From assembly GCA_937868765.1 (NCBI GenBank), contig CALMNL010000006.1, positions 434,001 through 498,000 on the forward strand: a stretch of 64,000 bases of DNA, in the 5' to 3' direction. Positions 12,421 through 19,518 of the stretch are shown in pieces (the stretch's first letter is position 1; each line of letters begins with the position of its first letter). The translations under genes and the position numbers were made by a program. The notes under the pieces were generated by a model. The model was not told where the DNA came from. It was given only the letters and a program-made list of their open reading frames with translations, and made no database searches. The DNA is from an uncultured Desulfatitalea sp. GTDB lineage: Bacteria; Desulfobacterota; Desulfobacteria; Desulfobacterales; Desulfosarcinaceae.

Positions 12421-12581
12421 TGTGGGTGTCGACCTATGCCGGGACGACCGCTCTAAATGAAGCGAGCGGAGGTGTTGCGAGTACGCCGGTATCGGCGACA
12501 CCCACAACGACCTCCGCTCTGCGGCCAGTCTGTTGTCTGGTGATGGACCGTGCTCTATGGCCGGGTCTGAATCAGACCCGG
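12421..12581 (-). ncRNA. Structured mRNA leader L1 upstream of sigma-like gene
   Basis: Transcribed leftwards, this region has a 10-bp hairpin (12561-12570 with 12572-12581). CACCAGACA follows, then a CGGAGGTCG segment, and then an 11-bp stem formed by 12496-12506 and 12421-12431 around a 64-nt loop. The stem ends 31 nt before the start codon. The same order of parts, with a compensatory base-pair change, occurs in leader L2 at 19836-19999. An internal AGCGGAGGT/ACCTCCGCT repeat could form a competing fold. Confidence 0.6.
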
Positions 12582-12904
12582 ACCGCGTCCGCCACGGTCA
12601 TGCGGACGGGCAATCCGTTGTCGATCATGAGTTCCTGGATCGAGAGCGAGCGCTCCCGGTCGAAGACCTCGAACAGCTCCGCCACCTTCTTTTTCAGGGC
12701 GAAGCCGTCGTTGCCGCGGGATTCGTTCGGCCCGTTGTCCTTCCCGAACAGAAACAGCCGCAGCACGGTGGGCGGGGGATCGAAGACCGGCTCGCCGTTT
12801 TGGACGCGCAGTCCCTCAATCCGTCCGTAGTTGACCTCCTGCATCAGCTCGACCAGGCGTTTCCTGGCAGGAGTCAGGGCCGCCTTTGTCACGACATTTG
12901 GCAT
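12572..12904 (-). CDS. Hypothetical protein of mobile element
   Basis: This 110-residue protein of unknown function starts at MPNVVTKAAL after GGAGGTGTGAC. It begins with a basic helical part (LTPARKRLVELMQEVNYGRIEGL) followed by a PPPTVLRLFLFGKDNG strand region and a helical C-terminus. Its start lies just after the terminator that closes the cargo operon, and its stop codon sits inside the first hairpin of leader L1. Confidence 0.65.
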   Translation of the reverse strand: MPNVVTKAALTPARKRLVELMQEVNYGRIEGLRVQNGEPVFDPPPTVLRLFLFGKDNGPNESRGNDGFALKKKVAELFEVFDRERSLSIQELMIDNGLPVRMTVADAVRV

Positions 12905-12929
12905 GTCACACCTCCGGTCTGGCCCTCTG

Positions 12930-12982
12930 GGCAAAGAAAAACCCCCGAGAGGCTGGCCCGGCGAAAGGCTCTCTCGGGGGTT
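12930..12982 (-). terminator. Rho-independent terminator ending the QueC-like operon
   Basis: AACCCCCGAGAG (12940-12951) pairs over 12 bp with CTCTCGGGGGTT (12971-12982). On the minus strand the stem is followed by TTTTTCTTTG. It lies 135 bp after the QueC-like stop codon and separates the cargo from the element's own genes. Confidence 0.8.
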
Positions 12983-13116: not shown

Positions 13117-15186
13117 TTAGATATCCCATGGGATATCATCATGGGGATCGTAACAGGGAGACCAACCACAACGTAGACGGGGGGATTTGAGATGTTCGGC
13201 TAAGCGCCTGTCATATTTCGCGATTTCTTTTGTTACACGTCGGATATTTGCCTGGAAAGCCTTTCGAACTCGGTCGCGGTCATCCGAGGCATTGCGAATT
13301 CTTTTTCCAAGGCCTTTATCCTTTTTGATCTGCTCAGCCAGAAAGACCATCTCTTGCCTAATATCGGACTCAGGGAATGGGGGGGCCATCCCTTGGTCGG
13401 TATAGTTCTGGGCTTCGGCCAGTTTCTCTTTCAATTCCTCATATCGAACGCGATATGCCGCAAAAGCATCTTGATCAGCAGCCTCACCCGCGCTGCCAAG
13501 CTGAAATTGCTGTGGAGCTTTGGCGACACGGAGGACCAAGTCAGTAACGCTGAACACTGTCTTGGGATTGGACAATAAAATATGCAGATAGGCAGCACCC
13601 TTGCACGGTAATAAGATGAAATCCTCACCACCGGCATACCTCGCGATCCACGCCTGTCCTTTTTTGCGGAAAACAAAATCCTTAAGTTCATCTTGTGGAA
13701 TTGGCGTTGAAGTTGGAACTCCAATGACTCCAGAAGTAGAAATCGCCGAGTCGCATACCAGACGCAAAAGGCAAGAATCCGGAAGCTCGCGTTTTCTTAT
13801 GGCACTGGCATAATTGGCAATCGACTGATCGATAACATCCGATACCGCTTTTGCATGTCTCTTGTGAAGCTCGAACAGTCGGAGCGCCGCACTGTCGGCA
13901 GATCCATCGATGTGTCTTAGGACCCGGGCGGCTTCTCCATAGCGACTGAAAAAGTCGATAGGTGACATCTTGCATACGTCTGACGCAGTCTCGACATATG
14001 CAGCCAGCATAATTCTTGATTCGCTATGTTTCCGATTGTCGTCAAAAGGATCACCAGCTGGTCGCTCTCCAACGAGTAGGTCCACGCCATAAGCCTCTGC
14101 TGGATCGTGCCCCTCCAGGCCGGCCGACAGCACGGCAAACCTGCGGTCGATACATTGAGAACAGGTCCCGCAATGTGTCAGCAGCCTCGTCATTTCCCAT
14201 GTATGTGTACAGCTAGTGGCGAACTTGATCATCTCAGCGCAACCTGATTGGCCTATCCCTTTTAGAATTTCAGTCTTGGTCTTCCACAAGAATGGATTCT
14301 CAACCACAAACGGTTTTCCGGCCAATATCGAAATAATTTTCGCAAAACCGCTGATTACTTGTGGATGTGTTGTCCTTGTTGCTCGTGCACCAACCACCTG
14401 TGAAGATGGGGGAAGGTTAAAGCTCACGACGCCATTTTCGTAGAATCGAATCCTGGAAAGATTGAACATCTGCGCGACAGTCGATCCAAGCGCCGCATAC
14501 AGAAAAGATCGGCTTCGTTGGGTATACTCGCGACCCAATGATTTCGCCTTGTTGATGCTCACCGGAATATGCAAGGGTGGGGTATCTGAGTGTTTTTCGA
14601 GAAGCTCTTGAAGCTTTCTATGCCTACGCGCCAGTTTGTGAGTCGGCTTGTGCATTACAAGAGCAATTTTGCGCTTATTTACAACAGCTTCATGGATCGC
14701 GCCGCCCAAAGAATCAAGCCCACCGGAAAACAGCACGACCTCTTCCGGTAGAGCAAAGTCAAATTCAAGATGCTGTTGGGTAGGTGGTTGCTTCGTCAAT
14801 TTCACAAAATCGAAATAGTATTCATCTTCAGAAAGAAAGCTGAGAGTCGCAATCAGTTGTTCTTTAAGTGGCGAGGAATTCCACAAATCCGGATTTCGAA
14901 CTGGAATTCTGAAAAACAGTCTCCTCCTCCAGTCGGCCCCGAAGTTCTGAACACCATCCCCCCCCCTTGTTACGGCTTGATCTGCACAGTAGACGTAAGT
15001 GGCAATTTCAATCAGATCATGGAATTGGGATGGAAGGTCTCGCAGCAAGTGTTCACGAATGTCAGAAATACTAAGCGAGACGTTTTCCTTAACTCCCCAC
15101 AAATGCAAACAGAGTGGATTGTCACCCCCGAACGGGAGATTTCCGTAAGAGACATCGCCGCAGAGTATAGAGCGCTCGTTAGCCAT
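13117..15186 (-). CDS. QueC-like PP-loop enzyme fused to a signalling-ATPase C-terminal domain
   Basis: This 689-residue protein starts at MANERSILCG; AAGGAG lies 9 nt before that ATG, which overlaps the stop of the upstream gene by 8 bp. Residues about 150-360 match QueC (7-cyano-7-deazaguanine synthase): PP-loop SGGLDS at 154-159 and zinc ligands Cys326, Cys339, Cys342, Cys345 in HCGTCSQCIDRR. At about 220 residues, normal QueC is much shorter. Residues about 505-689 match a C-terminal domain typical of bacterial signalling ATPases and response regulators: GAAYLHILLSNP, GSAGEAADQDAFAAYR, GLGKRIRNASDDRDRVRKA, and a terminal Cys/Tyr-Pro/Trp pattern. No queuosine genes are nearby. QueC-like proteins are known in the Qat and type IV CBASS defences; a similar role here is inferred. 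Confidence 0.8.
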   Translation of the reverse strand: MANERSILCGDVSYGNLPFGGDNPLCLHLWGVKENVSLSISDIREHLLRDLPSQFHDLIEIATYVYCADQAVTRGGDGVQNFGADWRRRLFFRIPVRNPDLWNSSPLKEQLIATLSFLSEDEYYFDFVKLTKQPPTQQHLEFDFALPEEVVLFSGGLDSLGGAIHEAVVNKRKIALVMHKPTHKLARRHRKLQELLEKHSDTPPLHIPVSINKAKSLGREYTQRSRSFLYAALGSTVAQMFNLSRIRFYENGVVSFNLPPSSQVVGARATRTTHPQVISGFAKIISILAGKPFVVENPFLWKTKTEILKGIGQSGCAEMIKFATSCTHTWEMTRLLTHCGTCSQCIDRRFAVLSAGLEGHDPAEAYGVDLLVGERPAGDPFDDNRKHSESRIMLAAYVETASDVCKMSPIDFFSRYGEAARVLRHIDGSADSAALRLFELHKRHAKAVSDVIDQSIANYASAIRKRELPDSCLLRLVCDSAISTSGVIGVPTSTPIPQDELKDFVFRKKGQAWIARYAGGEDFILLPCKGAAYLHILLSNPKTVFSVTDLVLRVAKAPQQFQLGSAGEAADQDAFAAYRVRYEELKEKLAEAQNYTDQGMAPPFPESDIRQEMVFLAEQIKKDKGLGKRIRNASDDRDRVRKAFQANIRRVTKEIAKYDRRLAEHLKSPRLRCGWSPCYDPHDDIPWDI

Positions 15187-15961
15187 CGGTCCGCGCTCCT
15201 TCCTTGAGTTCAGCCACAATTTTTTTCATGGCCACGTGCGCGAACCCTGCGGCGTCTTGCCTCGATATCCCCTTCTTCTCCCAGTTGGTCTTTGAAAACC
15301 ATCCCCCGGAAAATTCTTCGACTATTCTAGCTGCTTCGCGACTGTGCGTTCCCAGTGCTTTTGTGAACTCGCCTTGTTGAGCAAGCGTTCGAAAGCGACG
15401 GCCTTCGCCAATGTGATGGGCAACAGCTCTGGAAACGAAATAGTCAAGACACTTGTTTGTTAGTCTTGAAAAGAAATCTCTGGCGAAAATACTAAATTGT
15501 TTGTTGGTCGCGAGTTTGGAAAAGGCATTTGTGACATCATCGGGTGTTGTTCCGAATAGGCTCTGTGTCCGGGTTCCAATGATTTGCGTCATCGTTTCGG
15601 AAGCCGCCATCTGGGCCATTTCCCCCAGGTCCGTTCGGCCACCGTTGTTTGCCAACTTTCTGTCTATGGCGTCTGAGAATGCGCCGATTACCTCCATAAG
15701 GCTTGGGGAATCAGACACATCTATTCCATTGCTCTGGAGGGCCTCAGCGAAATTATCACTCTTGGCAGCCAGAGGCAGTTGAGTCAGAAGCCAGACTGTT
15801 TCTACGAGACCCTTGTCTTCCGCCGCCAGTCTAAATCCATCCTCGGCAGCTGTAATCGTCGCATTCGCAATTTGCGCCGTTCCGGCTCCGCCCTCGATAA
15901 GGGCAACAACTTGCTGCCATTTGCGTGTTCGGGGAAGATTGCCTAGTCTGATATGTCCCAT
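15179..15961 (-). CDS. Helical partner protein of the QueC-like enzyme (Met-Gly N-terminus)
   Basis: I recognise no family in this 260-residue protein. It starts MGHIRLGNLPRTRKW, so removal of Met would expose an N-terminal glycine on a conserved-looking, basic leader. The rest is almost all helical, with no signal peptide or membrane segment. The stop overlaps the QueC-like start (ATGGCTAA), showing translational coupling. In Qat-type systems a QueC-like protein partners with a protein that has a glycine near its N-terminus; by analogy this could be the protein substrate of the enzyme. That is a hypothesis. Confidence 0.65.
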   Translation of the reverse strand: MGHIRLGNLPRTRKWQQVVALIEGGAGTAQIANATITAAEDGFRLAAEDKGLVETVWLLTQLPLAAKSDNFAEALQSNGIDVSDSPSLMEVIGAFSDAIDRKLANNGGRTDLGEMAQMAASETMTQIIGTRTQSLFGTTPDDVTNAFSKLATNKQFSIFARDFFSRLTNKCLDYFVSRAVAHHIGEGRRFRTLAQQGEFTKALGTHSREAARIVEEFSGGWFSKTNWEKKGISRQDAAGFAHVAMKKIVAELKEGARTDG

Positions 15962-16007: not shown

Positions 16008-16259
16008 TTACTCTTGCGCTTTGTCGGTCATCGCAAGCCCGCGGGCCTTTCTGGCTTCGCGCTTAAGGTAGCCTTTGCGCACAAGTTGGTTCACCTGCCC
16101 ATGAGCGCTGGCGTGCGATATCCCGAGGATATCAGCAAGCTCCTTCATGGTGGGGGGGAACCCCCGACGGCTCGTGAAGAGACGGATCTCCTTTAGTGTT
16201 CGGCGCTGTGGCTCGGTTATCTCCTGAACGGGGCGTCGGCCCCGGGGATTTTTGATCAT
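16008..16259 (-). CDS. Stand-alone LexA-type winged-helix repressor
   Basis: The 83-residue protein matches the LexA N-terminal DNA-binding domain: QRRTLKEIRLFTSRRGFPPTMKELADILG, then HASAHGQVNQLVRKGYLKR. The LexA protease domain is absent. Its ATG overlaps the stop of the upstream nuclease-like gene (ATGA), and 46 bp separate its stop from the Met-Gly protein gene. A 20-bp palindrome fills the spacer of the operon promoter, so it is probably an autorepressor of the cargo operon. Without a protease domain it would not be cleaved by RecA in the usual way. Confidence 0.8.
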   Translation of the reverse strand: MIKNPRGRRPVQEITEPQRRTLKEIRLFTSRRGFPPTMKELADILGISHASAHGQVNQLVRKGYLKREARKARGLAMTDKAQE

Positions 16260-16732
16260 GGCGACGCTTCTCCGTAATCCTTCAACAGATCAAAGTTGTT
16301 GCGGTACTTCTCGAATCGGGGACGCGGTACGACCTGACCGGTTTTGCTGCTGAGGTTGGTGAAAACGATACGGTATTTACCGGCATTCTGTCCGGTCTTG
16401 TTCCGGTTGGCTTCTTTGATCAGCTCAAGCGAGGGAAGGACCCAATAGCAGTTGGTTTGTTCGGAAAAAAAGATGAAAAAGAAGTTGGCGCGGGGATTAC
16501 GGACTTCCAAGGCCGCAAATGTACCGGCGTTTTTCGGGTTACATTGTTTCGAGCGGGCCTTGATCTGGATGTCCAGATACACCGGTTCCCCGAAGATTTC
16601 ATTGCGGACCACGCAGTCGATTTGCTGATCATCCACCAAGGTCAGATAGACGTCGAAACCTCGCCTGAGCAGTTCAGCGATGGCAACGAACTCCTGGCGT
16701 TTCCCAAATGATGCTGAATCCCGGTAGGCCAT
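16256..16732 (-). CDS. PD-(D/E)XK endonuclease-like protein
   Basis: This 158-residue protein has a restriction-endonuclease-like core: FGKRQEFVAIAELLRRGFDVY (helix with Glu), DDQQIDCVV (Asp), and VYLDIQIKARS (Q-x-K variant of the E-x-K motif). It resembles small PDDEXK proteins of the group I intron endonuclease/DUF4365 type. The start has GGAGACAAA before ATG. It is the first gene of the cargo operon. A nuclease effector or a DNA-targeting accessory is possible; Gln in place of the catalytic Glu makes activity uncertain. Confidence 0.65.
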   Translation of the reverse strand: MAYRDSASFGKRQEFVAIAELLRRGFDVYLTLVDDQQIDCVVRNEIFGEPVYLDIQIKARSKQCNPKNAGTFAALEVRNPRANFFFIFFSEQTNCYWVLPSLELIKEANRNKTGQNAGKYRIVFTNLSSKTGQVVPRPRFEKYRNNFDLLKDYGEASP

Positions 16733-16937: not shown

Positions 16938-17372
16938 CTATTCGAGCCGGTCTTTGCGCATTTGAGCCCATATTTTTCGCTGTCGGTTCCAGTGGGGGAC
17001 GGCGGCGACCGGCCTCATGTCTTTTTCCAGAATCGGGTCTCGGCCCTTCGTTGTATTCGGAAGGAATAGGATCTCTTCCTGGATGTCCGGAGCGAGGTTG
17101 AGCAAATTCATGATCTGGGTGATGCGCGCACGGGTTACGTAGCCCAGGCGGGCGAGGTCCGCATAGTCCTGTATATCCCCTCGCTTGACCAGTCTCTCAA
17201 AGCGGATCGCCAAAGCCAGGAGCTTCGCAACCCGCGGTATGTTTCCTTTGCCGGTTGATCCGCGTCGGCTGTCCGATTGTGGGTTGACGTTCCCTCGTTT
17301 GTTGCGCGGCTGGAACGTGAAACTTACCTCCAGCCGCCCGTTGCTCCCAAAGTGATGCATGGTCGGTTTCAT
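16938..17372 (-). CDS. ParB-type HTH protein partnering the serine recombinase
   Basis: The 144-residue protein has a ParB/KorB-like helix-turn-helix at about residues 60-120 (VAKLLALAIRFERLVKRGDIQDYADLARLG, then TRARITQIMNLLNL). Its ATG overlaps the serine recombinase stop (ATGA), so it is translationally coupled. Small HTH proteins of this kind commonly follow serine recombinases with DUF2924 and may act as directionality or regulatory factors; that role is inferred. The 205 bp to the cargo operon contain its promoter. Confidence 0.75.
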   Translation of the reverse strand: MKPTMHHFGSNGRLEVSFTFQPRNKRGNVNPQSDSRRGSTGKGNIPRVAKLLALAIRFERLVKRGDIQDYADLARLGYVTRARITQIMNLLNLAPDIQEEILFLPNTTKGRDPILEKDMRPVAAVPHWNRQRKIWAQMRKDRLE

Positions 17373-18982
17373 ATGCGGTTTTCCTTTCCAAGGGCTGCCT
17401 GTCCCAGGCAAACGGCTTTGATGCCGGGGGAGCGAAACGTCACGGTCACTTTGCCATCACGGCCATCGTAGGCAACGCGCTCGACAAGGGCTTTAATAAC
17501 CCGCGCCTGTTCGCCCGGGGCAAGCGATTGCCAGATGGGGTCGAATGCCGCGAGGGCTTTTTCCAAGTCTTCGTCCTCGAGTGTTTCTCTTTGGACGGCG
17601 ATGGTTTCCTCGCGGATCACGGTCATCCTTTGTTCAAGAGAACGAATTTGGTCCTGGAGGTCAGCCATCTGATCCGTTGCCAACCCCTGGTCCGTTCCCG
17701 AGGACGGCAAGTCTCCCACGAGGGCGCGGAGCCTGGCGTCCAACCGTTTGAGTTCCCGCTCGTGAGCACGGCGCTCGGTTTCAAGTTCCGCCAGACGCTT
17801 TTCACTTTGAATCCGAACTTGGGAAGCCGTTTTCGAAATGACCTCCTGGTTCGCGCCCAAGCCTCGAATATAATCCACCACTGCGTCCTCAATTTCATAA
17901 GCATTGAGCGACTTGGTCGGGCAGGACGCCCATCCCCGCTGCTGAGCGGTCAGGCAGACATAGTAGCGGTAATGTTTCCCTTTTCTGGCGGTATAAGAAT
18001 GCACCATGGCGGTTCCACAAGGCGCGCAGTAAAGCAGCCCCCTTAGCAGCGCGCCGTATTTGTTTCGGATTTCCTTGCTGCCGGAGCGGCCATTGTGCCG
18101 AAGGGTATCTTGGACCCGCTGCCAAAGGTCCGGGGCTACGATCCTCTCATGCTCTCCGGGGTAGACGGTGCCCTTGTAATTGATGTTGCCTGTATAAATG
18201 ATGTTGGTCAGCAGTCGAAAGAGACTGCTTTTGTTAAAAAGATTCCCCCCGCGTTCCTCTCCTTTTTGGGTGGTCCACTTTTTTACACCCCACTTGCGGC
18301 GCTCGAGTTCCTGGACGACAGGCATCAACGCCTTGTGCTCCATGTAAAGATCATAGATGGCTCGCACCTGCTGGGCTTCTTCCTCGTTAACGACCAGCCG
18401 TCCTCCCTTGCGATCCAGGTCATAGCCGAGGACCGGCATGCCTCCGACCCACTTGCCCTTCTTCCGGGCGGCGGCCATTTTGTCCCTGGTGCGCTCCGAG
18501 ATGATTTCCCGCTCGAACTGGGCGAAGGACAGCAGGATGTTCAGGGTGAGCCGCCCCATGGAACTGGTGGTGTTGAACTGCTGGGTGACGGAGACGAAGC
18601 TCACGGCATGCTTGTCGAAAAGCTCCATGATGCGGGCGAAGTCGAGAAGGGAGCGGCTCAGCCGGTCCACCTTGTAGACGACCACGCAATCGATGTCACC
18701 GGCCTCGATGTCGGCGAAGAGTCTTTTGAGGGCGGGTCGCTCCATGTTACCGCCGGTAAATCCGCCGTCGTCATACCGATCGGCGATGCACAGCCATCCC
18801 TCGTGCCGCTGGCTCGCGATGTATGCCTCCGCAGATTCCCGCTGGGCGTCGAGGCTGTTGAATTCCTGGTCGAGACCCTCGTCGGTGGATTTCCGGGTAT
18901 AGATGGCGCAGCGCACGGTCGCTCGCCGGTTCTCCATAGACTGGTGGGTGGGGGTAATGTTTCTTTCGTATTGCCTGCTCAT
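17369..18982 (-). CDS. Large serine recombinase
   Basis: The 537-residue protein starts at MSRQYERN, overlapping the DUF2924 stop (ATGA). The catalytic domain shows Ser in IYTRKSTDEG, the DRLSRSLLDF motif, and LNILLSFAQFEREIISERT. A recombinase domain with a zinc ribbon follows (LLYCAPCGTAM ... GWASCPTK), then a coiled coil (residues about 380-460, EKRLAELETERRAHERELKRL). This is the layout of phage and ICE integrases that recombine short att sites. It is complete and probably moves this element. Confidence 0.92.
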   Translation of the reverse strand: MSRQYERNITPTHQSMENRRATVRCAIYTRKSTDEGLDQEFNSLDAQRESAEAYIASQRHEGWLCIADRYDDGGFTGGNMERPALKRLFADIEAGDIDCVVVYKVDRLSRSLLDFARIMELFDKHAVSFVSVTQQFNTTSSMGRLTLNILLSFAQFEREIISERTRDKMAAARKKGKWVGGMPVLGYDLDRKGGRLVVNEEEAQQVRAIYDLYMEHKALMPVVQELERRKWGVKKWTTQKGEERGGNLFNKSSLFRLLTNIIYTGNINYKGTVYPGEHERIVAPDLWQRVQDTLRHNGRSGSKEIRNKYGALLRGLLYCAPCGTAMVHSYTARKGKHYRYYVCLTAQQRGWASCPTKSLNAYEIEDAVVDYIRGLGANQEVISKTASQVRIQSEKRLAELETERRAHERELKRLDARLRALVGDLPSSGTDQGLATDQMADLQDQIRSLEQRMTVIREETIAVQRETLEDEDLEKALAAFDPIWQSLAPGEQARVIKALVERVAYDGRDGKVTVTFRSPGIKAVCLGQAALGKENRI

Positions 18983-19518
18983 TCGTTCCTCCCGTCCGGC
19001 TCGTTGTCTTGATCTTGCGGTCCCTTGGGTTCCGCAAGCCCGAAAAAGAGGAACCCGTTCCACTTGCTCCCGGTGGCCTCCTGGGCGACAGCGGACAGGG
19101 ACTTGAACCACCGGCCGTCATATTCGAAGCCCTTGTCCAGCACCTTTGCCACAATGTCCCGGCCCCGGAACTCCCTGACGAGCAATGTTCCCGGAAGCGG
19201 CAGCCTGTGGTCCCGTTGAGGTTGCAGCCTGCCGCTCACCGACCGTTCCCTGACCTCCATCAATCCCGGTTTTATGGGGTCTCGCAGCATGCGGATTCTA
19301 AGGTCCGCGTCATTGGCGATCTCCTCGGCCCTCCGTCTGGCCCGTTCAGATAGGCTGCCTTCGGCCAGGGCCTGCAACCGCCAGGCGATCCTTTTCCGAA
19401 GAAAGTCCTTGTGGTGGGACCTTGTCTCCTCTCCGAAGACATCGATATACCTTTCCCGGAGTTCCCCGACGGTCATTCGGGAAAGGGCTTGCACTTGCTG
19501 ATACGTCGTTTCATTCAT
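18979..19518 (-). CDS. DUF2924 protein
   Basis: This 179-residue protein of the DUF2924 family has MTVGELRERYIDVFGEETRSHHKDFLRKRIAWRLQ in the N-terminal half and a beta-rich C-terminus (GTLLVREFRGRDIVAKVLDKGFEYDGRWFKSLSAVA). The start is placed at MNETTYQQ, 26 codons into the longest frame, after a GGAGG-like site (AAACCTTTGGAGGTTGTC). Family members almost always precede a serine recombinase, as here, but their role is unknown. Confidence 0.85.
   Translation of the reverse strand: MNETTYQQVQALSRMTVGELRERYIDVFGEETRSHHKDFLRKRIAWRLQALAEGSLSERARRRAEEIANDADLRIRMLRDPIKPGLMEVRERSVSGRLQPQRDHRLPLPGTLLVREFRGRDIVAKVLDKGFEYDGRWFKSLSAVAQEATGSKWNGFLFFGLAEPKGPQDQDNEPDGRNE

What the first reader, a model, noticed from the sequence alone, without database searches (positions are those of the whole stretch)
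13117..15961. Two-gene QueC-like enzyme plus Met-Gly protein: candidate undescribed modification or defence system
A QueC-like PP-loop protein (SGGLDS, zinc Cys326/339/342/345) is translationally coupled to an unrecognised 260-residue helical protein that begins Met-Gly. There are no queuosine genes, and the pair sits as cargo in a mobile element with nuclease and repressor genes. QueC-like proteins are part of the Qat and type IV CBASS defences. Here the ATPase, TatD-like and CD-NTase partners are missing, so it would be a minimal form. I infer that the enzyme might attach a deazaguanine-like group to the N-terminal glycine of the partner.
Basis: partly seen in the sequence, partly recalled or inferred. 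Interest (0 to 1): 0.88.

Follow-up and report, generated by a model that had tools for sequence, protein, structure and literature searches.

The report
Prophage two-gene QatBC-like protein-modification cassette
A prophage carries a tight pair of genes, a relative of the anti-phage enzyme QatC fused to an extra swappable domain and a helical partner that almost always begins Met-Gly, which looks like an undescribed two-gene branch of a known family of phage defences thought to tag a partner protein chemically.

Summary
Window 13117-15186(-) encodes a 689-aa QueC-fold protein (C); window 15179-15961(-) encodes its 260-aa, predicted all-helical partner (B), which starts MGHIRLG; the genes overlap by 8 nt. 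C is a divergent QatC: it has QatC's Thr pair rather than the Tyr/Asp of QueC and Cap9, scores below NCBIfam's QatC cut-off, and carries about 220 extra C-terminal residues. B matches no family model or PDB fold; kinship to QatB is only suggestive.

I found 139 B loci. Of the 132 full-length ones, 131 have C directly downstream and 131 have Gly2; the exception to both is the same locus (L013). No QatA or QatD was found in those flanks, and the host genome has no KAP NTPase. The pair sits in a prophage; 80 of 132 loci carry a serine-integrase relative. C's C-terminal module varies (unnamed module, wHTH-like, DpnII/MboI-like nuclease).

Best reading: a two-gene, prophage-borne branch of QueC-family immunity in which C modifies B's N-terminal glycine. 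A sufficient minimal QatBC and an essential QatB Gly2 are already published, so this is a new variant, not a new kind. Modification, its chemistry and defence are untested for this branch.

The parts
13117..15186 (-). C: QatC-like QueC-fold enzyme, 689 aa
   Evidence: PADLOC QatC E 2.8e-45; NCBIfam QatC 177 bits (cut-off 280); phmmer to PDB QatC E 2.2e-24; Foldseek to QatC 9y01_B E 4.4e-19
13777..15186 (-). C residues 1-470: QatC-like core (N-terminal extension, QueC fold, following helices)
14710..14727 (-). SGGLDS pyrophosphate-binding loop, C residues 154-159
   Evidence: S,G,G,D,S 79 of 79
14362..14379 (-). TRTTHP, C residues 270-275; T270 and T272 correspond to QatC T278/T280
   Evidence: T270: 69 T, 10 S; T272: 78 T, 1 S
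14152..14211 (-). zinc-site cysteines C326, C339, C342, C345
   Evidence: 79 of 79 each
13117..13776 (-). C residues 471-689: extra C-terminal module of the window type, swapped in relatives
15179..15961 (-). B: partner protein, 260 aa, predicted all-helical, begins MGHIRLGNLPRTRKW
   Evidence: no match above cut-off or at E 0.001 in Pfam, PADLOC, NCBIfam or PDB
15917..15961 (-). N-terminal motif MGHxRLGxLPxTRKW of B; Gly2 codon at 15956-15958
   Evidence: Gly2 132 of 133 sequences including the window; His3 130 of 133
15179..15186 (-). 8-nt overlap of the B stop and the C start (translational coupling, inferred)
   Evidence: overlap of 4-14 nt in 126 of 131 homologous pairs, starts chosen by script
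16008..16259 (-). LexA-type HTH protein upstream, probable phage regulator; not a consistent companion
   Evidence: relatives in 33 of 132 loci
16256..16732 (-). weak PD-(D/E)XK-like protein
   Evidence: relative in 1 of 132 loci
17369..19111 (-). large serine integrase of the prophage
   Evidence: relatives in 80 of 132 loci, 77 within 2.5 kb upstream of B
12572..12934 (-). 120-aa phage gene on the other side of the pair
   Evidence: relatives in 23 of 132 loci

Best explanation
This is a two-gene branch of the QatBC type of QueC-family anti-phage systems, carried as prophage cargo. Shown by sequence: a QatC-type ATP-pyrophosphatase (C) with intact ATP loop, zinc-site Cys and the QatC-specific Thr pair; a near-obligate, predicted helical partner (B) whose second residue is Gly; overlapping genes; no QatA or QatD in the flanks; an extra swappable module at C's C-terminus. 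Inferred: the start Met of B is removed, B docks on C with its short tail in the active site, and C uses ATP to activate a small carboxylic acid and couple it to the alpha-amine of Gly2. The group may be a 7-deazaguanine or a different acid, because the base-binding Tyr/Asp are replaced by Thr. The modified B-C complex then protects the lysogen against other phages. The C-terminal module (unnamed window type, wHTH-like, or DpnII/MboI-like nuclease) is the likely DNA-reading or DNA-cutting end, doing within C some of what QatA (binds DNA) and QatD (predicted nuclease) may do in Qat.
For: C is nearest QatC by sequence and fold (QatC E 4.4e-19, QueC 4e-5, Cap9 1e-3), with QatC's TRTTHP. Published QatB+QatC alone defend against lambda, and QatC SGGxDS, the QatC Thr pair and QatB Gly2 are all essential (PMC13279940 parts 1-3). 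B-C coupling 131 of 132; B and C distances correlate, r 0.77 against a maximum of 0.24 in 2000 permutations, as linked genes would. Gly2 51 of 51 in the genome-contig set and 10 of 10 readable N-termini on contigs found only through C. The one B with Asp2 (L013) is the one full-length B with no C, and G2D is the published substitution that kills QatB function. Prophage position and a serine-integrase relative in 80 of 132 loci. Upstream of the same 120-aa phage gene, related viral contigs carry type III restriction, methyltransferase and ImmA-type genes. Module swapping.
Against: No activity has been shown for this branch. B has no PDB fold match at E 0.001, QatB queries that find each other at 22% identity find none of the 132 B genes, and the HMM match to QatB is weak (40-57% probability; 0.6% to a second MGTS set), so B may be an unrelated partner. 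C is below the QatC equivalog cut-off. Not every QatC-like enzyme has a Met-Gly partner: L236 and L237 pair a QatC-like gene with a protein starting M(S/T)DGP. The window module has no Pfam match and no convincing PDB match, so DNA binding is inferred from what it replaces. No control set was used for defence neighbours: PADLOC hits among 150 neighbours were scattered, 1-2 members in each of the 25 families shown of 52. The restriction-type genes upstream of the 120-aa gene were seen on stretches where the integrase was not in view. The branch is rare in named records: B in 1 of 72,556 plasmid and 0 of 50,697 phage records, and in 2 of 291 genomes of the class, the window's own included. L013 is one case in one metagenomic contig.
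Confidence: 0.72

Rival explanations
1. It is an ordinary, divergent qatABCD remnant: a prophage kept qatB and qatC and lost A and D, with no separate branch.
For: QatBC alone defends against lambda; weak HMM similarity of B to QatB in one region.
Against: 0 of 132 loci have QatA or QatD relatives in the held flanks, while each of 4 canonical loci is found by the other three's queries. The MGH/long-C form is found under names of many phyla with its own conserved N-terminal motif and C-terminal modules, so it is not a recent decay product. The window's B matches nothing in NCBIfam, which holds a QatB model.
Confidence: 0.13
2. C is a regulator: an ATP-using sensor with a DNA-binding C-terminal domain that, with B, controls prophage genes (lysogeny or exclusion) rather than a defence that acts on invading phage.
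For: wHTH-like modules, and a window-type module that takes the place of HTH-like ends in another cassette; location beside integrase and a LexA-type HTH gene.
Against: Two C proteins carry a DpnII/MboI-like nuclease module instead. 52 of 132 loci show no serine-integrase match, though flanks are short in some. The catalytic residues tested are kept.
Confidence: 0.15
3. C makes free preQ0 or a related base, for tRNA or for modifying phage DNA.
For: QueC fold and zinc/ATP motifs.
Against: Tyr/Asp of the base pocket are Thr. The host already has a canonical queC with a radical-SAM gene beside it. One TGT in the genome, on another contig (a divergent DpdA could be missed). QatC itself fails to restore queuosine (PMC13329287).
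Confidence: 0.03
4. B and C are a toxin-antitoxin pair in which C or B is toxic and Gly2 modification sets the switch.
For: Two-gene overlapping architecture on a mobile element; nuclease modules in two relatives.
Against: B is not a recognisable antitoxin; no intact long C without B was seen where upstream sequence was held. Not excluded as a mode of action of a defence.
Confidence: 0.07

Closest known systems
QatB-QatC of qatABCD (solved complexes 9y01, 9y02; QatC chains 9zee_B, 9vlk_A)
   Same: QatC-type core, SGGxDS, zinc Cys, TRTTHP Thr pair; helical partner encoded just upstream with an N-terminal Met-Gly; the pair alone can defend against some phages (published).
   Different: B begins MGHxRLG instead of MGTS with a tail of about 12 instead of 30-90 residues, and is not recognised by QatB models or fold. 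C has a further swappable module of 106-443 aa. No QatA or QatD found.
Cap9 and its CD-NTase partner, type IV CBASS
   Same: QueC-fold enzyme paired with a protein whose N-terminal glycine is the acceptor (published for Cap9).
   Different: Cap9 keeps the Tyr/Asp base pocket; its partner is a CD-NTase; C is far longer and nearer QatC.
[quoted passage not shown]
   Same: Fold, ATP loop, zinc site.
   Different: Substrate pocket, length, gene context; a canonical queC is present elsewhere in this genome.
MGTS QatB-like + QatC pairs without QatA/QatD beside them (L160, L161, L162, L164)
   Same: Two-gene pair of QatB-like and QatC-like genes.
   Different: MGTS start, short QatC (428-442 aa), clear HMM match to canonical QatB (98.9%); not in a recognised prophage setting (by eye).

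Membership tests
QatC (Qat anti-phage system) | Passes the NCBIfam QatC equivalog cut-off (280 bits) | tested here: not met
   177.2 bits; 178.8 bits
QatC (Qat anti-phage system) | QatC-specific active site: SGGxDS, RxRxxxF/Y, Thr pair in TRTTHP, zinc Cys with CGxCxxC...RR | tested here: met
QatC (Qat anti-phage system) | QatC fold with N- and C-terminal extensions | tested here: met
   9y01_B E 4.4e-19, TM 0.75 by target length
qatABCD system | QatA KAP NTPase and QatD TatD nuclease in the operon | tested here: not met
   0 of 132 loci, cross-detection 4 of 4 canonical loci; no KAP NTPase in the host genome; TatD elsewhere in the genome not tested
QatB | Match to the QatB family model | tested here: not met
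   no NCBIfam family up to E 1 for the window's B (the library holds NF041924 QatB)
QatB | N-terminal MGTS motif on a 30-90 residue disordered tail | tested here: not met
   MGHxRLG, first long helix from residue 13; the Met-Gly part is met
QatB | Distant homology or same fold | tested here: inconclusive
   40-57% probability, score 34.6-37.8 (0.6%, score 18.3, to the second MGTS set) against at most 22.2 for 23 decoys; no hit at E 0.001, QatB not among the 50 listed of 509
Cap9 (type IV CBASS) | CD-NTase partner and Tyr/Asp base pocket | tested here: not met
QueC | Tyr/Asp base pocket and linkage to queD/queE | tested here: not met
   linkage judged from the genes next to the pair
N-terminal-glycine protein-modifying QueC systems | Partner Gly2 is covalently modified | not testable with these tools
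   only conservation tested: Gly2 132 of 133
Anti-phage defence system | Protects against phage | not testable with these tools
   context only

The most novel reading that the evidence does not exclude
A separate class of QueC-family immunity spread by temperate phages, in which the modifying enzyme carries its own swappable DNA-binding or nuclease effector and tags a partner unrelated to QatB with a group other than 7-deazaguanine, so that tagged B licenses the effector. The lone G2D partner without enzyme (L013) would then be an untaggable decoy that blocks rival prophages' copies.
Probability: 0.2. Interest if true: 0.85.

Novelty: new variant of a known kind. Interest (0 to 1): 0.64.

Why it matters
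The reaction catalysed by QatC, and how a modified QatB stops a phage, are open questions stated by the authors of a QatBC structure. This branch offers a natural two-gene version with a short substrate tail, in which the enzyme is fused to candidate effector domains, in two relatives a recognisable nuclease. That makes both questions testable with two genes. It also shows that prophages in many kinds of bacteria carry QueC-type pairs that current models see only in part: the enzyme falls below NCBIfam's QatC cut-off and the partner matches nothing.

Tried and rejected
Rejected: queuosine/preQ0 synthesis and phage-DNA deazaguanine modification (Thr pair; canonical queC, queE-like, queD-type and TGT genes elsewhere). 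Rejected: a four-gene unit with the HTH and nuclease-like genes upstream (relatives in 33 and 1 of 132 loci). Considered but not established: B = QatB fold. Led nowhere: PDB search with B, Pfam and PDB for the window module, QatB in viral contigs (none confirmed), B in phage records (no match), C in phage records (two Listeria phage records, 28% identity, not followed).

Limits of the counts: one of the two patterns of viral scan contains MGHxRLG, so those viral loci lean toward Gly2; scans 20 and 26 did not use the first residues. Seven of 139 loci were dropped before the Gly2 count: L050, L066, L068, L070, L071 (match does not reach residue 1: contig edge or broken gene) and L069, L081 (contig end or early stop). 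L005 and L064 are the same sequence. The host names are those of metagenome bins for most loci, and a bin may misplace a mobile element. 37 of the 48 MGH contigs in the QatC-side survey were already known from the B searches; 11 were new. The module survey kept 79 C proteins including the window (B non-redundant at 90%, complete, over 560 aa). The structure alignments held 52 B and 50 C rows, the window included. The neighbour scans covered 150 of 178 neighbour genes. Upstream genes were listed for 26 of 37 loci, and 10 proteins were scanned per library. The first QatA/QatD control was matched by its own queries; one search repeats it with each locus left out and still finds 4 of 4.
Full report
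What is there. The window's minus strand carries B (15179-15961, 260 aa, MGHIRLGNLPRTRKW...) followed by C (13117-15186, 689 aa), overlapping by 8 nt. C matches QatC in PADLOC (E 2.8e-45, residues 53-362), NCBIfam QatC at 177 bits under a 280-bit cut-off, Pfam QueC, and solved QatC chains (E 2.2e-24 and 1.8e-20). B matches nothing above cut-off in Pfam, nothing in PADLOC or NCBIfam up to E 1, and nothing convincing in the PDB.

The pair is real and near-obligate. Searches with B gave 57 loci in genome contigs and 80 in viral contigs (the best 80 of 97 kept), plus one from a same-order genome (the same sequence as L064) and one on a Leptospira plasmid: 139 loci. In 132 the B gene could be read from residue 1; 131 of these have a C gene directly downstream. 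With starts chosen by script, the genes overlap by 4-14 nt in 126 pairs and are apart in 5, at most about 100 nt. Names in the genome set include Planctomycetota, Pseudomonadota, Deltaproteobacteria, Acidobacteria, Myxococcales, Bacteroidales, Krumholzibacteriia, Omnitrophica, Armatimonadetes and Gemmatimonadaceae, mostly metagenome bins. It is nonetheless rare: 2 of 291 genomes of the window's class, its own included, 1 of 72,556 plasmid records and none of 50,697 phage records. B and C distances agree over 79 pairs (r 0.77; maximum of 2000 permutations 0.24), as expected of genes that travel together.

Gly2. It is present in 132 of 133 sequences (131 of 132 loci plus the window), in 51 of 51 genome-contig sequences, and in 19 of 20 sequences after clustering at 50% identity. 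The genome-contig scan used internal patterns only; one viral scan did use an N-terminal pattern. The residues after MGH can vary (for example MGHQEPPP and MGHQRGSR). Gly2 ranks with W221, E251 and F163 among the most conserved columns (88 of 89). The exception, L013, reads ATG GAT against ATG GGT in relatives 89-91% identical in protein, and is the only full-length B without C; similarity to the relatives stops about 20-30 nt past the B stop, and no C remnant was found in its 15.6 kb. G2D is the mutation that abolished QatB function in the published work. This is one case, in a metagenomic contig. Broken B genes without C also occur (L066, L068, L071).

Survey from the other side. Four lack upstream sequence (L172, L176, L200, L210). 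Of the other 55, seven have an MGTS partner with a C region of 407-453 aa, and 48 have an MGH-family partner, mostly with C of about 600-720 aa. 37 of those 48 contigs were already known from the B searches. Of the 11 new ones, 10 can be read at the N-terminus and all 10 have Gly2; L208 is cut by the contig edge. L219 (the contig of L081) has an early stop in B, and L224 has a stop in C. No intact long C without B was seen. Outside this set, two plasmid operons pair a QatC-like enzyme with a partner starting M(S/T)DGP, without Gly2 (L236, L237), so Met-Gly is not universal for QatC relatives.

Active site. In 79 non-redundant C proteins the S, G, G, D and S of SGGxDS, R224, R226, the four zinc Cys, H274 and R348 are invariant; T270 is T in 69 and S in 10; T272 is T in 78. 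T270/T272 align with QatC T278/T280, which replace the Tyr/Asp that hold the base in QueC and Cap9 and are essential in QatC. The attached group is therefore as open here as in Qat.

Fold. The AlphaFold2 model of C (mean pLDDT 86.8) is nearest QatC (9y01_B E 4.4e-19), then QueC (4e-5) and Cap9 (1e-3). The B model (mean pLDDT 90.7; residues 1-5 below 50) is all helix and has no PDB match at E 0.001 or better; QatB is not among the 50 listed of 509 (that its chain is in the library is inferred from 9y01_B being there). QatB queries find other canonical QatB genes at 22% identity but none of the 132 B genes. HMM comparison with QatB gives 40-57% probability, score 34.6-37.8, against at most 22.2 for 3 reversed and 20 column-shuffled decoys, but 0.6% (score 18.3) against a second set of MGTS proteins that themselves match canonical QatB at 98.9%. 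Distant homology of B and QatB is possible, not shown.

The extra module. Beyond the region shared with QatC, C continues for 106-443 residues. In 79 proteins the module is of the window type in 35, an L127 type in 30 (weak wHTH likeness: Trans_reg_C E 0.046 for L127, none for L125), an L120 type in 6 (Trans_reg_C E 1e-10 for L120), a DpnII/MboI-like nuclease in 2 (E 7e-7 and 1e-10), and other or unassigned in 6. The window module has no Pfam or convincing PDB match. It recurs at the C-terminus of the second gene of a different two-gene cassette (L268, L269, L271; E 1.1e-31 or better), where relatives have HTH-like ends by eye, and in a 652-aa ORF that looks TPR/TolB-like by eye (L234). DNA binding is an inference from this swapping. 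On the core tree the module types need 6 changes (minimum 3).

Setting. The pair lies between a serine integrase (17369-19111) and phage replication genes (primase, RecD-like helicase, ERCC4-type nuclease, SSB, Sak4, exonuclease, sigma factor); to the left are terminase, portal, head, tail-sheath, tape-measure and baseplate-hub matches. Serine-integrase relatives are found in 80 of 132 homologous loci, 77 within 2.5 kb upstream of B. I listed the genes upstream of the 120-aa gene in 26 of 37 related viral stretches. Six carry the B-C pair there (L244, L247, L248, L249, L259, L263; B of L248), and L253 a B on the other strand; five of these six are contigs already known. Others carry type III restriction genes (L258, L261), a methyltransferase (L271), an ImmA-type protein (L270) and unnamed cassettes. 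The integrase itself is in view in 7 of the 26 stretches and not in those with restriction genes, so that they occupy exactly the same slot is likely but not shown. QatA and QatD relatives are absent from the held flanks of all 132 loci; 60 loci have 3 kb on both sides. The host genome has no KAP NTPase.

Literature. PMC13279940 (parts 1-3 of 6 read, plus passages) shows that QatBC suffices against lambda and that QatB Gly2 and QatC catalytic residues are essential. PMC13329287 (parts 1-3 of 5, plus passages) reports that about 34% of QatC-cluster genes lie with qatA and does not, in what I read, describe this branch. PMC11996544 was seen as an abstract. The listings of searches showed no paper on an MGH/long-QatC pair; the library holds no bioRxiv collection and lacks most subscription papers, and supplements were not read.

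Verdict. A new variant of QueC-family, QatBC-type systems: prophage-borne, two genes, its own substrate motif, an enzyme-fused swappable module. Mechanism by analogy with QatBC: ATP-dependent modification of B Gly2 by C. Modification, chemistry and defence are untested here.

Noticed in passing
L236 3333-5287 and L237 3280-7029 (plasmids of Shinella and Sinorhizobium): Another QatC-like operon: a 191-193 aa partner beginning M(S/T)DGP without Gly2, a QatC-like enzyme, an XRE-type regulator (RmrA-like in L237) and, in L237, a PIN-domain protein.
   Followed up: partly
L160-L165: MGTS QatB-like proteins beside a QatC with no QatA or QatD seen next to them (L160, L161, L162, L164), and without a detected QatC in two (L163, L165); the four pairs lie near a conserved NPW(V/I)YDFAA... 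gene.
   Followed up: partly
L242, L255, L256, L265, L268, L269, L270, L271: By eye, an unnamed two-gene cassette upstream of the same 120-aa phage gene (gene 1 about 310-413 aa, with N(P/A)LL(K/R)(A/E)FF in five; gene 2 about 320-400 aa with a swappable C-terminus, in three cases the window-type module). L242 and L268 genes and L255 gene 1 had no Pfam match above cut-off; the two L242 genes had none in PADLOC.
   Followed up: partly
L258, L261, L266, L272: Large phage-carried proteins with an (S/SQ)YEPK(D/N)HI... start region; in L261 the C-terminal part matches RtcR-type AAA regulators, and type III restriction genes lie upstream in L258 and L261.
   Followed up: no
L013 8001-8765: Intact B with Gly2 changed to Asp and no C gene; dN/dS against three relatives 0.08-0.10, much of which may predate the loss.
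   Followed up: partly
L041, L043, L059: C proteins of 903-922 aa; the one tested (L041) has a 443-residue C-terminal module without a Pfam match.
   Followed up: no
L234 (G117:C31:64090-64644): The window-type module ends a 652-aa ORF that looks TPR/TolB-like by eye, so the module is not confined to QatC-like proteins.
   Followed up: no
L238 5670-9533: 1287-aa prophage protein with DNA-methyltransferase matches in the structural-gene region.
   Followed up: no
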